From: Phycisphaerales bacterium
Lineage (GTDB): Bacteria > Planctomycetota > Phycisphaerae > Phycisphaerales > UBA1924
Assembly: GCA_029260345.1 (NCBI GenBank)
Contig: JAJDDK010000001.1
Span: 1 to 64,000, forward strand
DNA: 64,000 nt
Direction of reading: 5' to 3'
The notes below the pieces were generated by a model that made no database searches, had not been told where the DNA came from, and was given only the letters and a program-made list of their open reading frames with translations. Shown piece by piece: positions 7,727-13,606 of the stretch (position 1 is its first letter; each line of letters starts with the position of its first letter). The position numbers and the translations under genes are program-made.

Positions 7727-9937
7727 TTATCGGGCGGTTCGCGAACGCCGATGCTCACGCATTTCCGCCAGGCGTTCGCGAAGGCGGCTTAACGTCCCTT
7801 CGGCATGGCGCAGCTCGTCCTCGGTCAGCAGTCGCCGCCCGTAACGCGAGGCGTAATACAAGTCCGCGATTGTCCCCACTGCCGCCGCGAGTTCTGCATC
7901 AATGCGCGTCAGCGCCGCCGCATGATCCTTCACCGGACGCCATGTTGGCTTCGCCAGCCTCGAACGCTTCAAAGCGACCAGTGCTTCGTTGTAGAAACCG
8001 CGCTGTTGCAACCGCTCGACCGCTCCGGGGTCCTCCCGAAGCTCCGCCGCACGTTCGCGGCGTTTGGCGCGCACGATCGACCACACCGCAGCAAGCTGCA
8101 CGAGTGCGAAACCGAGCGCCGCGGTCGCGCCAAAGGCGACCACGCCGCGCAACATCGCAATTACAATGATCGGCGCCCCGCCCGCCTGTCGCGGTAAAAG
8201 CGCATCACGCAGCATGCCCTGCGCCGTGCGCTCTATTCCGAGCGGATCCTCACCCACCATCTCCTGCCGGCGCGTTTCGTTGAACGCGACGACGGAATTG
8301 ATCCACCAGCGGCTCACACCATCCATGAATCCACGAATGACCGCCGCGAATCCGCGCGGAGGCTCGTGCGCCGTCGCCAGATCATCCGGCGGCGAGGCGT
8401 CGAGACTCACCCATTGACCGCTGTCGAGCTGCACTTCCGTCCATGCATGCGCATTGCTTTCGCGAACGAGATACGCGCCGCTGTCCTCGTCAAACTCAAC
8501 TGCCATGTACCCCGTGATCACCCGCGCATCAATCCCGACGCTCAGGCACATCGCCGAAAGCGCCGACGCGAAGTATTCGCAATGCCCTTCTCGCGTGCGA
8601 AAAAGAAACATTTCAATCGGATCTTCACCTGCGTCCGGCGCGTTCATCTGCGTGGTGTAGATGTAATTCCGATGCAAATGATCGACCAGCGCTCGCGCCG
8701 CGCCCAGCACATCCGTGGGTGATCGATCATCCGGATCCAGCGGAAAACCAGCGTCCTGCACCAGCGAAACCGCGAGATCATGCACCGGGCCATCCTGAAA
8801 AATGCGCTCCGGTCGCGCCAGCGGCGCCCCCGCTTCTTCAAGCTGCACGCGCACGGAATAGCGCAATCCCCCACCGCCGCCCGGTGCGCGAATCTGTAAA
8901 TCCCGCTGACCAATCTCCACGCGTGCGTTGCGCTCTAGCGTGAGTGAATACGGGCGCAACATCGTGAAGAGATAATCATTGGGTCGCCGCCGCAGCGTAA
9001 TATCAAGCGTAAACGTCGGCACCTGCGGCGACGGCGCGTCAAAGGCCACGGGCGCCCCCGGCGCGAACGAATAGGCAAGATCGCGTCGTTCAGAATCATC
9101 ACTGCGCGTCCATCGGCCATCGCGATACAGATCAAGCACGGCGCCGCGCAGCAGCAGCGGTCGCTCTTCAGATCCAACATTGCGGCCGGAGGCGTCCAGC
9201 AACACCACATCCATGACGGGTGTCTTTGATTCCGTGATGAAACCGGCGGAGCCGAGCGTCACCGAATCATTGAAACCCGAGACGCGCATGCTTTCGGGCC
9301 CCCCCCAATCACCGATGAATCCCTCACCAATCCCGCGCGGGACCAGCACGAAAATCCCAACGGCGGTCGCAAACGAAAGCACACCCAGCGATGCGGAGAG
9401 CTTCAAGAGATCAACACGGGAACGTCGTGAACTTAAAATTCGGCGGACTGGTTTTCGCGAGGGTTCGCGCACTTCACGCAGCGCCGTCAGTTCATGCAGC
9501 AGCGTCGTCCAAATCATCAGCGGCATGTACACCAGGAGCGCCGCGCCAAGCCAAATTGAGTTGCTCGTGAGAAGGGCGCCGATCACGAGGAACACACTCA
9601 TGATCACCAAGACGCCTCGATCGCGCACTGTCCACCGGTCATAGAGCTTGGCGATTTGCAGCCACAGCAGCAGCCGCGACACCGCGATCACCAAATCATG
9701 CGCATCCGTCAGCACGCGCAGCACCGAATACGCCAAGGCCGTCAAAATCACGAGCAAAACGACGCCCCGCGGCAGCGGCCTTCCTTGCGACCCGAGGCTC
9801 ACCGGCCACGCCATGATCCACGCCGGCAGCGCAATCAGCGCCAGTAGCCAGTCGCCTTCGGCAATGCAATACGTCGCTACGCCGACGCCGATCGTCAGGT
9901 ACACCAGTCGCCGAATTCGGTCCGTTGCAGAATTCAT
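7727..9937 (-). CDS. TgpA-type transglutaminase-like membrane protein
   Basis: A 736-residue protein with an N-terminal block of about six membrane helices (DUF3488-like), a periplasmic part with the transglutaminase core, another membrane helix near 590 and a cytoplasmic tail. The catalytic triad is visible: Cys453 in EGHCEYFAS, His497 in NAHAWTEV and Asp513 in SLDASP. TgpA relatives sit next to DUF58 and MoxR genes and act at the cell envelope, but their substrates are largely unknown. The start overlaps the stop of the DUF58 gene by four bases, indicating translational coupling. No MoxR gene is seen in the window. Confidence 0.9.
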   Translation of the reverse strand: MNSATDRIRRLVYLTIGVGVATYCIAEGDWLLALIALPAWIMAWPVSLGSQGRPLPRGVVLLVILTALAYSVLRVLTDAHDLVIAVSRLLLWLQIAKLYDRWTVRDRGVLVIMSVFLVIGALLTSNSIWLGAALLVYMPLMIWTTLLHELTALREVREPSRKPVRRILSSRRSRVDLLKLSASLGVLSFATAVGIFVLVPRGIGEGFIGDWGGPESMRVSGFNDSVTLGSAGFITESKTPVMDVVLLDASGRNVGSEERPLLLRGAVLDLYRDGRWTRSDDSERRDLAYSFAPGAPVAFDAPSPQVPTFTLDITLRRRPNDYLFTMLRPYSLTLERNARVEIGQRDLQIRAPGGGGGLRYSVRVQLEEAGAPLARPERIFQDGPVHDLAVSLVQDAGFPLDPDDRSPTDVLGAARALVDHLHRNYIYTTQMNAPDAGEDPIEMFLFRTREGHCEYFASALSAMCLSVGIDARVITGYMAVEFDEDSGAYLVRESNAHAWTEVQLDSGQWVSLDASPPDDLATAHEPPRGFAAVIRGFMDGVSRWWINSVVAFNETRRQEMVGEDPLGIERTAQGMLRDALLPRQAGGAPIIVIAMLRGVVAFGATAALGFALVQLAAVWSIVRAKRRERAAELREDPGAVERLQQRGFYNEALVALKRSRLAKPTWRPVKDHAAALTRIDAELAAAVGTIADLYYASRYGRRLLTEDELRHAEGTLSRLRERLAEMREHRRSRTAR

Positions 9938-11070
9938 GATGAAACCGGCGCCACCACCGGACGAACCGGCGCCACCGCACGATCGGCGGAAATATGCAGA
10001 GCGCCCGGCGGCGCGATGGATGGGTCAATCGATTTGGAGTGAATCACAATGAGCGATCCGCCTTCGTGATTCACTGATTGAGGCTTCCGCAATGAAGAAT
10101 TACCCTCCAGAGCGAGCCGCGCCAGCGCGTCTTCGATCGGGTCCGCCGCGTTCGACTCAGTCCCATTCGTGCGGCTCTCCACACGGAGATGACCAACGGG
10201 AGAAATCAGCAGCACACGCGCCCCGCGCCGGCATGCCACATCCGCCATGCCGGCCGCAACACTGATCGCGCGTTCATCGCTTTCGTCGGGAGGCGCATCA
10301 GGCGCTTCGGCGTCCGCGAAACTCAGTCCGATGACGATGTCCGCCGACACCGCTGCATACGCTTCGCGCACCACCAGTTCACCCGTCCGCGCGGTCGCCC
10401 GCCATGCAATGTGGCGCAACGGATCACCCGGCGCATACTCGCGCAATCCGTAAAATTCTGCATCCCGGCCAATGCGCTGCGACACGCGTTCGGTTGAACC
10501 GATTCCCGAAAGCGCCTGATCAAGCAGTTGCCGCGCCGTCGGCGTCAGCGCGGGTCGAATCAGCGTTTGGCCCGGCTGCACAAATGTCACCGATTTCTTC
10601 AGAATGCCAAACGGAAAGGTCGTCCAAATGCGCACGTGCGTCAGTTCCGCTTCGCCGCGCGCCAGCGGCGTCACGATCGCCGTCGCATGGCGCACTTGCC
10701 GGCTCGGCACGTGCACGAGCGCCGCCTGAATCGTCGGCAGCAATTGGCGCCACGGCGCTTTGCGCCGGCCATCTCCTTCTTCAATCACCAGTCCAAATGC
10801 GGGGAGCCAGCGGCTCGTGTTGTAAACGCGATACACGAACAGCATGGGCTCGCCAACGCGGCCCACCCCGGTCGGCGCTCGGCGCACTTCAAGATTCATC
10901 AGCGCCATTCCGCTCACAAATCCGGAAACCAAGATCGAGCCAAGCGCCAAACCAAAGGCGAAAAACAATAAATTGTTCTGGCTGTTCACAGCGCCAAGCC
11001 CCATCAGCAACGTCACGCCGATGTACAGCGCGCCGGGGCCATGGAAGTGATATCGCCGCCGAGCCTTCAT
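9934..11070 (-). CDS. DUF58 domain protein
   Basis: A 378-residue protein with two N-terminal membrane segments (about residues 13-60), a beta-rich middle and the DUF58 signature YGLREYAPGDPLRHIAWRA in the second half, followed by a von Willebrand A-like part with a DxS-like motif lost or altered. DUF58 proteins commonly accompany MoxR AAA ATPases and transglutaminase-like proteins and are thought to act in envelope protein assembly. Here the gene is coupled by a four-base overlap to the TgpA-type gene. The short gap to the SpoIID/LytB gene upstream (54 nt) suggests one transcript. Confidence 0.88.
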   Translation of the reverse strand: MKARRRYHFHGPGALYIGVTLLMGLGAVNSQNNLLFFAFGLALGSILVSGFVSGMALMNLEVRRAPTGVGRVGEPMLFVYRVYNTSRWLPAFGLVIEEGDGRRKAPWRQLLPTIQAALVHVPSRQVRHATAIVTPLARGEAELTHVRIWTTFPFGILKKSVTFVQPGQTLIRPALTPTARQLLDQALSGIGSTERVSQRIGRDAEFYGLREYAPGDPLRHIAWRATARTGELVVREAYAAVSADIVIGLSFADAEAPDAPPDESDERAISVAAGMADVACRRGARVLLISPVGHLRVESRTNGTESNAADPIEDALARLALEGNSSLRKPQSVNHEGGSLIVIHSKSIDPSIAPPGALHISADRAVAPVRPVVAPVSS

Positions 11071-11124: not shown

Positions 11125-12447
11125 TCAAAACATGCGAGAAAGTTCAGCGCCGGGGTAATACACCGCCAAAATCTCTTCCGGCGATTTTCCCGTCCGCGAG
11201 AGCCCTTCAGCGCCAAACTGGCACATCCCCACGCCGTGGCCGAAACCGCGACCCGTGATGATCACGCGCTCACCCTTGATCTCCACGCTCACATCACCGC
11301 TCCACACCGTGTCCGCCGCCTCAGGGCGACCCAGACCCGATGATCCGTTGTGATTCATCGCCAGGCGCAGTTCCTCCGCCGACATCCGCCACGTCGCGCC
11401 TTCGGCGTCCGTGATGCGATACGTCGCCGGACGCTGGGCCGCGTTGTGTCGCTCAGGCTCAATGGAATGAAGACTGCGAATCGATCGAATCGCCATGCCC
11501 TGATCGGCGCCAAAAGCGCGCATGCGACGTGCCAGGACCGTCGAGGATCGCTCCACCGTCCAGCGGTAGCGCGGCGAAAAATCACACGGGCACTCGTGCG
11601 GCACGCCCTGAATCGGCGCCGCGAGATTGAATTCAAATCCGCGCCCGATTGGCCACGTGTCGCGCGCCGAGCCCGGCCGTCCGCCGCACGTGCTCGAGTA
11701 GTACGCCCGCAGCACAGCGCCCTGATACGTCAGCACCTTGCCGCGCGTCTGCGCGACGGCCAGCTTCGCTTTGTCGCTCGCATCGGAACCGCCGTACGCC
11801 TGATCCTGCGTCGTGCTTTCAACATCGAACGACGATCCGATCGCAATGCGACGCTCCCGCTCCTGAATGGCGTAGCTGCGCGCGGCGATCGCCTGCGCCG
11901 AATATGTCGTCAGCGACCAATTCGGATACAGCTCACGCGACAACACGCCCGGCAGATACTCCTCAAGATTCACATGCTCAATGAGGTCGAACGTCTTCTC
12001 GTCCTCTCGCGCCTCAATCGCCATGAATCCCGGGTATTCCGCATCGCCGAGGCGAATGCGGCCGGACATGGCTTCAAGGCGCAACGGCGAAGTCGCTGAA
12101 TACGTGCGCGATCGACCGTCGGCGCCTCGCACATTCAACCCTGACCCCACGAGCCGCACTCGCACCGGGCTTTGAAACACACGCCCGTCGCGCCCGCGCC
12201 CTCGCAAGGTGTCAACCAGCACTCCGCTGTCCGCGTTGAGCACCACTTCATTCACGTCGCGCATCAATCGAACGCGCATCACCACATCGGAGGCCAGCGG
12301 CCTTGATGTCGGCGTTCGGTCAACGTCGTCCAGCGGACGCTGCTCCGCCGTGAACGACGCCATCGGCAAGACCAGCAAAAATGCGAATAGGGGACGATGG
12401 CGCCAGCGGCGGCTCAATCGTCTGCTGTCCGGCGCACGACCATCCAT
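11125..12447 (-). CDS. SpoIID/LytB domain protein (peptidoglycan-active)
   Basis: A 440-residue exported protein with a signal peptide (hydrophobic FAFLLVLPMASFTA at about 21-34). Two family blocks are clear: LEEYLPGVLSRELYPNW with AQAIAARSYA in the middle, and GFGHGVGMCQFGAEGL followed by ILAVYYPGAEL at the end. In Bacillus SpoIID is a lytic transglycosylase needed in sporulation, and LytB-type relatives modify amidase action. In a non-sporulating Gram-negative-type cell the role is probably cell-wall remodelling. It lies between the TPR/alpha-CTD gene (67-nt gap) and the DUF58 gene, in a run that also encodes other envelope proteins. Confidence 0.9.
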   Translation of the reverse strand: MDGRAPDSRRLSRRWRHRPLFAFLLVLPMASFTAEQRPLDDVDRTPTSRPLASDVVMRVRLMRDVNEVVLNADSGVLVDTLRGRGRDGRVFQSPVRVRLVGSGLNVRGADGRSRTYSATSPLRLEAMSGRIRLGDAEYPGFMAIEAREDEKTFDLIEHVNLEEYLPGVLSRELYPNWSLTTYSAQAIAARSYAIQERERRIAIGSSFDVESTTQDQAYGGSDASDKAKLAVAQTRGKVLTYQGAVLRAYYSSTCGGRPGSARDTWPIGRGFEFNLAAPIQGVPHECPCDFSPRYRWTVERSSTVLARRMRAFGADQGMAIRSIRSLHSIEPERHNAAQRPATYRITDAEGATWRMSAEELRLAMNHNGSSGLGRPEAADTVWSGDVSVEIKGERVIITGRGFGHGVGMCQFGAEGLSRTGKSPEEILAVYYPGAELSRMF

Positions 12448-12514: not shown

Positions 12515-13606
12515 TTACAGCGGCAACGGCGGAGGCGGCGTTCCGCCAACTTCATCCTCGAAGTCCAGATCGCGGAGTGAAAGACCAAAGTCCGCCAAAC
12601 GCTCGCGCACTTCGTCAAGCGACGTCTGACCGAAGTTTTTCACGCCCATCAATTCCGCCTCAGTGCGCGCCGCCAGTTCGCCCATCGAGCGAATCCCAAG
12701 CGATTGCAGCGCCTTACGGGCCCGCACGGACAAATTCAGATCGCCGATCGGCTTCTCCAGCGCCTTCTCCGCGCCGGACTGCTTGGCCCGGTCATAAATC
12801 TCGCGGCGAATGTGCCGGTGCGCTTCTTCCACACGCTGGCCGAGGCGAAGGCCCTTCACCGAAAGCATGTCGCGAATTTCCTGAAGCGACGCTTCGCCGA
12901 AATTCTTGTACGCCAGCAGTTCGCTTTCCGAGACGCGCAGCAGATCGCCAAGCGTACGGATGTTCATTTTCTTGAGACAATTGCGCGCACGAACGGAAAG
13001 CTCAAAGTCCGTCACCGGGGTATCGAGAAGCGCATTGCGCTTCAATAGGTCACGATCAAGCTCTTCGTCGTAGTACATCTCGCGCGAGGCGATGACGTCT
13101 TTCATGAACAGCCGCGCCCGCGGATGATTCGGGTCGGTGTCGAGCACCTGACGCAGGCACTTTTCCGCCCGCGCATATTCGCCGTCGTCTTCGTAGAGCA
13201 CCGCGAGATTGATCAGCGCGTTCACCGGCGCCGGCGACTGCGACACGCACCTCTCGTACATGGCGATCGCTTCACCTTCTTCGCCCGCCAGATCCAGCAG
13301 AAAGGCAAGCCGGAACAGCGCATCCTGATTGTTCGGGTCCGATCCCGCCGCCTTCCGAAGCTCCGCGATCGCTGAAGAGCGGTCACCGGTGGACTCCGCC
13401 TCGCGAGCGGCGCCAAAGTGCTTTTGAGAGGCGTCGCGCTCTGCCTGCGTGGGCTGAGAAGCGCCAATGACCGTATCCATCACATCCTGGGGCATAGGTG
13501 ACTCCGACAAACCCCCGCCGCCGGCCGATGCGGCCGCCAGCGCAGGGCGATCTACTTTCAAGGATAGCTTTCCGGCGAACTCACCAATGTACGACACCGG
13601 CGGCAC
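12515..13606 (-). CDS. TPR protein with tandem RNA polymerase alpha C-terminal domains
   Basis: A 363-residue protein with an unusual layout. Residues about 60-165 form tetratricopeptide repeats. Residues 198-255 and 285-345 each match the alpha-subunit C-terminal domain (alpha-CTD) of RNA polymerase, with helix-hairpin-helix motifs NFGEASLQEI and NFGQTSLDEV. The arginine matching E. coli Arg265, the key UP-element contact, is kept in both (Arg206, Arg295). Asn268 is kept only in the first copy, and Lys298 is replaced in both. The tail is acidic then Pro-rich. There is no alpha N-terminal domain, so this is not RpoA. It lies 21 nt after fabI on the same strand. A transcription-related scaffold role is inference. 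Confidence 0.85.
   Translation of the reverse strand: MPPVSYIGEFAGKLSLKVDRPALAAASAGGGGLSESPMPQDVMDTVIGASQPTQAERDASQKHFGAAREAESTGDRSSAIAELRKAAGSDPNNQDALFRLAFLLDLAGEEGEAIAMYERCVSQSPAPVNALINLAVLYEDDGEYARAEKCLRQVLDTDPNHPRARLFMKDVIASREMYYDEELDRDLLKRNALLDTPVTDFELSVRARNCLKKMNIRTLGDLLRVSESELLAYKNFGEASLQEIRDMLSVKGLRLGQRVEEAHRHIRREIYDRAKQSGAEKALEKPIGDLNLSVRARKALQSLGIRSMGELAARTEAELMGVKNFGQTSLDEVRERLADFGLSLRDLDFEDEVGGTPPPPLPL

What the first reader, a model, noticed from the sequence alone, without database searches (positions are those of the whole stretch)
12515..13606. TPR protein carrying two RNA polymerase alpha C-terminal domains
Sequence shows TPR-like repeats (about residues 60-165), then two alpha-CTD modules (198-255 and 285-345), and no alpha N-terminal domain. 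The residue equal to E. coli Arg265, which contacts UP-element DNA, is kept in both copies. Free-standing alpha-CTD pairs are not part of the standard transcription machinery. Inference: it could bridge RNA polymerase or UP-element DNA to a TPR-bound partner, acting as a transcription regulator or decoy.
Basis: partly seen in the sequence, partly recalled or inferred. Interest (0 to 1): 0.75.

Follow-up and report, generated by a model that had tools for sequence, protein, structure and literature searches.

The report
Planctomycete TPR protein with twin αCTDs
Nearly all sampled genomes of the bacterial phylum Planctomycetota carry one copy of an unstudied protein that joins a protein-binding repeat domain to two copies of the DNA-gripping tail of RNA polymerase, which suggests a phylum-wide transcription factor nobody has yet tested.

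Summary
Both C-terminal modules are true RNA polymerase αCTDs: Pfam 79 and 72 bits, PDB profile hits only to RpoA, and AlphaFold/Foldseek matches at about 0.7 Å to αCTD bound to AT-rich DNA. Generic HhH is far weaker. The genome has a normal separate RpoA.

The protein is much more than a local oddity. A full-length relative is present in 291 of 294 Planctomycetota genomes sampled, nearly always one copy. Of 170 orthologs examined, 168 have exactly two αCTDs. Module 1 is better conserved than the αCTD of the phylum's own RpoA, and its DNA-face positions are almost fixed. The gene heads an ancient, eroding ruvA-ruvB-queH-spoIID-tgt-yajC-secD cluster; in the window only spoIID remains.

Best explanation: a phylum-wide trans-acting αCTD pair that binds AT-rich upstream DNA, perhaps beside sigma region 4, tethered by its TPR to RNA polymerase or a regulator. 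DNA binding is strongly predicted; the TPR partner and sign of regulation are unknown. No paper describing it was found. Other phyla could not be searched.

The parts
12515..13495 (-). TPR - αCTD - αCTD gene, 326 aa from the conserved ATG (the ORF extends to GTG 13606)
   Evidence: ORF and translation; ortholog starts; relatives in 291/294 genomes of the phylum
13079..13447 (-). TPR helices, residues 17-139 (about three TPR units)
   Evidence: Pfam TPR families; AF2 helices with pLDDT about 98 and Foldseek matches to TPR structures
12833..13027 (-). αCTD module 1, residues 157-221; most conserved part of the protein
   Evidence: 79.2 bits to PF03118; column table; majority-residue frequency 80%; Foldseek to αCTD/AT-rich DNA
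12776..12838 (-). linker helix between the modules, residues 220-240; variable sequence
   Evidence: AF2 helix 220-240; 35% majority-residue frequency for residues 222-247
12563..12757 (-). αCTD module 2, residues 247-311; position 268 changed to K/R
   Evidence: 71.7 bits to PF03118; column table
11125..12447 (-). SpoIID-domain gene next downstream, about 67 bp gap, same strand; conserved neighbour, probable operon partner
   Evidence: PF08486 E 2.8e-21; first labelled downstream gene in 46 of 66 loci from the named-genome scan

Best explanation
The protein is a phylum-wide, RpoA-independent carrier of two αCTDs. Each αCTD, module 1 above all, grips the minor groove of AT-rich DNA upstream of promoters as the RpoA αCTD does, and module 1 keeps the acidic patch (E. 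coli 259/261) that lets a promoter-proximal αCTD touch sigma region 4. The N-terminal TPR binds a protein partner, most likely RNA polymerase or a transcription regulator, so the protein adds or redirects αCTD contacts in trans at many promoters, i.e. it acts as a global transcription cofactor. Shown: the domains, their predicted fold, the conserved DNA face, near-universal single-copy presence in the sampled phylum, ancestral operon position. Inferred: DNA binding, sigma contact, TPR-RNAP tether, sign of regulation.
For: Two αCTDs far above cut-off and PDB profile hits only to RpoA. AF2 mean pLDDT 93; the αCTD half matches Caulobacter αCTD on AT-rich DNA 9zum (0.7 Å over 64 residues) and αCTD/sigma region 4/UP DNA 3n97. 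Module 1: R265 100, N268 88, C269 98, N294/G296/E302 100, S299 98, D259 95, E261 93%; module 2 keeps R265, N294, G296, S299, E302 and has K/R268. DNA-face positions are more conserved than the rest: 98 v 74% (M1), 82 v 58% (M2), permutation p 5e-5 and 0.003. In 13 genomes module 1 is 64% identical on average against 53% for the RpoA αCTD. Present in 291/294 genomes, nearly all one copy; 168 of 170 orthologs have two modules. Heads the eroding ruvA-ruvB-queH-spoIID-tgt-yajC-secD cluster.
Against: No binding, expression or knockout data. Position 297 is Glu in 94% of module 1 (Lys in 76% of RpoA), which lowers positive charge on the DNA side. Structure predictions do not test complexes. Nothing in the sequence names the TPR partner. 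The conserved neighbours are repair, tRNA-modification and secretion genes, not transcription genes. The Planctopirus TraDIS paper's main text does not name the gene, and its tables were not readable here.
Confidence: 0.45

Rival explanations
1. Decoy or repressor: the free αCTD pair occupies UP elements, or αCTD-contacting activators, without bringing RNA polymerase, and so lowers αCTD-dependent transcription.
For: No alpha NTD, so it cannot assemble into RNAP by that route; intact DNA face; module 1 close to a genuine αCTD.
Against: Near-universal, nearly always single copy, head of a housekeeping operon: unusual for a dedicated inhibitor. The TPR would have no role.
Confidence: 0.15
2. Nucleoid-associated or architectural protein: tandem αCTDs grip AT-rich minor grooves genome-wide and the TPR multimerises or recruits, independent of promoters.
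For: Two DNA-binding modules joined by a predicted helix; near-universal; module 2 has K/R at 268 and a mean net charge of +1.9.
Against: The acidic sigma-facing patch 259/261 is also kept in module 1, which general DNA binding would not need.
Confidence: 0.15
3. Adaptor in transcript elongation or transcription-translation coupling: the αCTDs bind αCTD-type protein partners (for example NusA) rather than DNA, and the TPR links to another machine.
For: E. coli αCTD is known to bind NusA and many activators (own knowledge); TPRs are protein-binding modules; Glu297 on the DNA face of module 1.
Against: R265, G296, S299 and E302, the DNA-contact set, are almost invariant, which a purely protein-binding role would not obviously need.
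Confidence: 0.12
4. DNA recombination or repair factor working with RuvAB: αCTD used as a helix-hairpin-helix-type binder of junction DNA.
For: RuvA lies next downstream in 27 of 57 wider-phylum loci, often 4 bp away or overlapping.
Against: The same cluster holds queH, spoIID, tgt, yajC, secD, and the gene stays when ruvAB leave; αCTD scores far exceed generic HhH.
Confidence: 0.08

Closest known systems
RNA polymerase alpha subunit C-terminal domain (RpoA αCTD, PF03118)
   Same: Same fold and residues: Pfam 79/72 bits, about 42-50% identity and 0.7-1 Å to solved αCTDs, DNA-contact residues kept.
   Different: No alpha NTD; two αCTDs in one chain behind a TPR; Arg at 267, Glu at 297 (module 1), Lys/Arg at 268 (module 2). 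The genome has its own complete RpoA.
Small free-standing αCTD-like protein PRK07758 (NF005841, 95 aa)
   Same: αCTD-like module outside RpoA; weak match at 202-254, 49.7 bits against a cut-off of 115.
   Different: Single module, no TPR (model is only 95 positions long).
BREX kinase PglW (NF033442)
   Same: Its model aligns to the αCTD modules at positions 784-860.
   Different: Large kinase-containing defence protein; 41 bits against a cut-off of 990.
TPR-containing SARP regulator AfsR (PMC10936776)
   Same: A TPR protein acting in transcription initiation; the abstract describes cryo-EM of how its SARP domain activates transcription. An AfsR-RNAP structure, 8hvr, appears among αCTD matches.
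   Different: Has its own DNA-binding SARP domain and a NOD domain; the present protein carries αCTDs itself.
TPR proteins such as MamA and designed CTPRs
   Same: TPR fold.
   Different: No αCTD.

Membership tests
RNA_pol_A_CTD domain (PF03118) | Profile score above the curated cut-off for each module | tested here: met
   79.2 and 71.7 bits against 23.8; all 70 members of A4 match
RNA_pol_A_CTD domain (PF03118) | αCTD fold | tested here: met
   AF2 pLDDT 92; Foldseek 0.7-1.0 Å to RpoA αCTDs
RNA_pol_A_CTD domain (PF03118) | DNA-contact residues (E. coli R265, N268, C269, G296, S299, E302; K298) | tested here: met
   Module 1 keeps all but K298, which is T in 95% of the phylum's RpoA too; module 2 keeps R265, G296, S299, E302 but has K/R268 and A/C269
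RNA_pol_A_CTD domain (PF03118) | Binding to AT-rich DNA | not testable with these tools
   needs EMSA or footprinting
RNA polymerase alpha subunit (RpoA) | Alpha N-terminal domain for assembly and beta/beta' contact | tested here: not met
   Only TPR and αCTD found by Pfam; RpoA equivalogs 141 bits or less against cut-offs of 228-523; true RpoA elsewhere
Generic helix-hairpin-helix DNA-binding protein | HhH profiles score better than αCTD | tested here: not met
   HHH_5 25-29 bits against 143-146 for αCTD
TPR protein | TPR units above curated cut-offs | tested here: met
   TPR_19 54 bits against 25; Foldseek to TPR structures
Planctomycetota core gene | Present in nearly all members, one copy | tested here: met
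   291/294 genomes, nearly all one match at E<=1e-20; 55 of 59 in a second draw
Planctomycetota core gene | Restricted to the phylum | not tested
   No genome of another phylum could be reached; no plasmid record had a place covering >=80% of the protein

The most novel reading that the evidence does not exclude
Planctomycetota have an additional, conserved component of the transcription initiation machinery: a TPR-tethered tandem αCTD that works in trans at promoters beside RpoA's own αCTDs, so that upstream-promoter recognition in a whole phylum depends on a factor absent from model bacteria.
Probability: 0.35. Interest if true: 0.82.

Novelty: new variant of a known kind. Interest (0 to 1): 0.66.

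Why it matters
A near-universal, nearly always single-copy transcription-type protein in a large phylum with unusual cell biology has, as far as this search could see, no name or experiment. If its αCTDs act at promoters it would show that the αCTD, normally a fixed tail of RNA polymerase, can work as a separate subunit, and it would change how promoters and UP elements are read in Planctomycetota. Module 1 being more constrained than the αCTD of the phylum's own RpoA makes the question directly testable in a genetically tractable species such as Planctopirus limnophila.

Tried and rejected
Generic HhH (UvrC, ligase or RuvA type): rejected on score. Pseudogene or chance ORF: rejected by 60-76% identical orthologs and near-universal presence. 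Loss of K298 as a sign of lost DNA binding: rejected, since RpoA of the phylum also has Thr there (95%). A link to RuvAB as the main function: weakened, since the gene stays when ruvAB are gone. Search outside the phylum through the 'Bacteroidia' record L086: its genome and its 'phylum' draw behave as Planctomycetota, so no outgroup was gained. Whole-model Foldseek was dominated by TPR designs, so the αCTD half was folded apart. Ten literature searches gave no paper on this protein.

Full report
Observation. The ORF lies on the minus strand. Orthologs begin at the motif M-x(2,4)-D-(P/V)-M-D, which sets the likely start at ATG 13495 and a protein of 326 aa. Pfam gives TPR repeats followed by two RNA_pol_A_CTD domains of 79.2 and 71.7 bits, cut-off 23.8. 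No alpha NTD is present and no NCBIfam equivalog reaches its cut-off. The only other αCTD in the genome is in a complete RpoA at C1:124892-125068. Phmmer against PDB hits RpoA chains and TPR proteins; a profile of the αCTD half hits only RpoA chains.

Structure. AlphaFold2 with 113 aligned sequences gives mean pLDDT 93 for the whole protein, pTM 0.65: TPR helices 17-139, a further helix 144-157, αCTD 1, a 21-residue linker helix, αCTD 2. The αCTD half folded alone (pLDDT 92) matches by Foldseek Caulobacter αCTD bound to AT-rich DNA (9zum, 0.7 Å over 64 residues, 48% identity), E. coli αCTD with CAP and DNA (3n4m, 1lb2), and αCTD with sigma region 4 on UP/-35 DNA (3n97). The TPR half matches TPR proteins.

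Distribution. All 61 genomes of the first survey (own genome and 60 relatives) have some match; 59 have the full-length protein, the other two (G001, G026) only weaker matches. In an even draw of the phylum 291 of 294 genomes of at least 90% completeness have it at E<=1e-20, nearly all with a single match; in a second draw 55 of 59. In the class, nearly all of 99 genomes have exactly three αCTDs: RpoA plus the two here. Named relatives are Phycisphaerales, Sedimentisphaerales and other Planctomycetota, apart from two record titles that look mislabelled. Other phyla could not be reached, so phylum restriction is not shown.

Conservation. Of 170 orthologous open frames 168 have exactly two αCTDs; in L173 and L177 only one is recognised and the second is degenerate. 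The set holds some genomes twice, once from each collection. In E. coli numbering, module 1 has R265 100%, N268 88, C269 98, N294 100, G296 100, S299 98, E302 100; position 298 is T/A/S, but the phylum's RpoA is also T (95%). Module 2 has R265 99%, K/R268 95, A/C269 95, N294 97, G296 96, S299 95, E302 99. Both have Arg/Lys267 (97-99% in module 1, 92-94% in module 2), not typical of RpoA; module 1 has Glu/Asp297 where RpoA has Lys. The acidic pair 259/261, known from E. coli work as the sigma-facing patch (own knowledge; compare 3n97), is D/E in about 98% of module 1 and less kept in module 2. DNA-face positions are more conserved than the rest in both modules; this test does not separate DNA contact from structural need, as for G296. 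In 13 genomes paired by species, module 1 is 64% identical on average, module 2 50%, the RpoA αCTD 53%. Within the protein, majority-residue frequency is 55% for TPR, 80% module 1, 35% linker, 67% module 2. Outside the Phycisphaerales-rich set the N-terminal part is about 100-140 residues longer, and two such proteins showed only TPR and αCTD in Pfam.

Neighbourhood. In 27 of 57 wider-phylum loci the next labelled gene downstream is ruvA; in others spoIID (6), tgt (5) or queH (1); in 46 of 66 loci of the named-genome scan it is spoIID. Full versions read TPR-αCTD, ruvA, ruvB, queH, spoIID, tgt, yajC, secD (L115, L128), shorter ones lack ruvAB-queH (L119, L120) or also spoIID (L113); identities by Pfam for RuvA, QueH, SpoIID, Tgt, RuvB, YajC and SecD by sequence reading. 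The simplest account is an ancestral cluster headed by this gene and eroded by lineage. In the window the SpoIID gene 11125-12447 follows after about 67 bp. The neighbours are housekeeping genes and do not point to one function.

Interpretation. DNA binding through at least module 1 is strongly predicted from homology, fold and residues. Because the alpha NTD is missing, RNAP contact, if any, must be made by the αCTDs (to sigma or regulators) or by the TPR. A phylum-wide, nearly always single-copy gene with a more constrained αCTD than RpoA itself is most easily read as a general transcription cofactor; a decoy, a nucleoid protein, a NusA-type adaptor and a RuvAB partner remain as rivals. None is excluded by data.

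Literature. Searches of the open PMC library found no description. The main text of the P. limnophila TraDIS study reports 739 essential genes, 108 essential proteins of unknown function specific to the phylum, and does not contain 'TPR' or 'tetratricopeptide'. Subscription papers were not searchable, so 'undescribed' is limited to this library. Automatic annotation may well already label such proteins by their domains in public databases; that was not checkable here.

Noticed in passing
L173 and L177 (same family), C-terminal region: The second αCTD has decayed (R265 region lost) while module 1 is intact: a natural single-αCTD variant that could show which module matters.
   Followed up: partly
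G393:C215:8334-8807: A 701-aa open frame matches query residues 150-302 at 31% identity: possibly another protein with an αCTD pair.
   Followed up: no
genomes G404, G409, G412, G415, G425, G428: Four or five αCTD matches instead of the usual three in the class.
   Followed up: no
NCBIfam NF033442 (BREX PglW), model positions 784-860: The BREX kinase PglW model aligns to the αCTD modules, suggesting that PglW carries an αCTD-like domain.
   Followed up: no
L086 (titled Bacteroidia) and L044 (titled Vicinamibacteraceae): Record titles disagree with gene content; both behave as Planctomycetota.
   Followed up: partly
window 7727-11070: TgpA-type transglutaminase (with DUF4129) and DUF58 gene pair on the minus strand, downstream of the SpoIID gene.
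   Followed up: no
αCTD position 298 in RpoA of Planctomycetota: Lys298 of E. coli RpoA is Thr in 95% of the 21 Planctomycetota RpoA examined.
   Followed up: no
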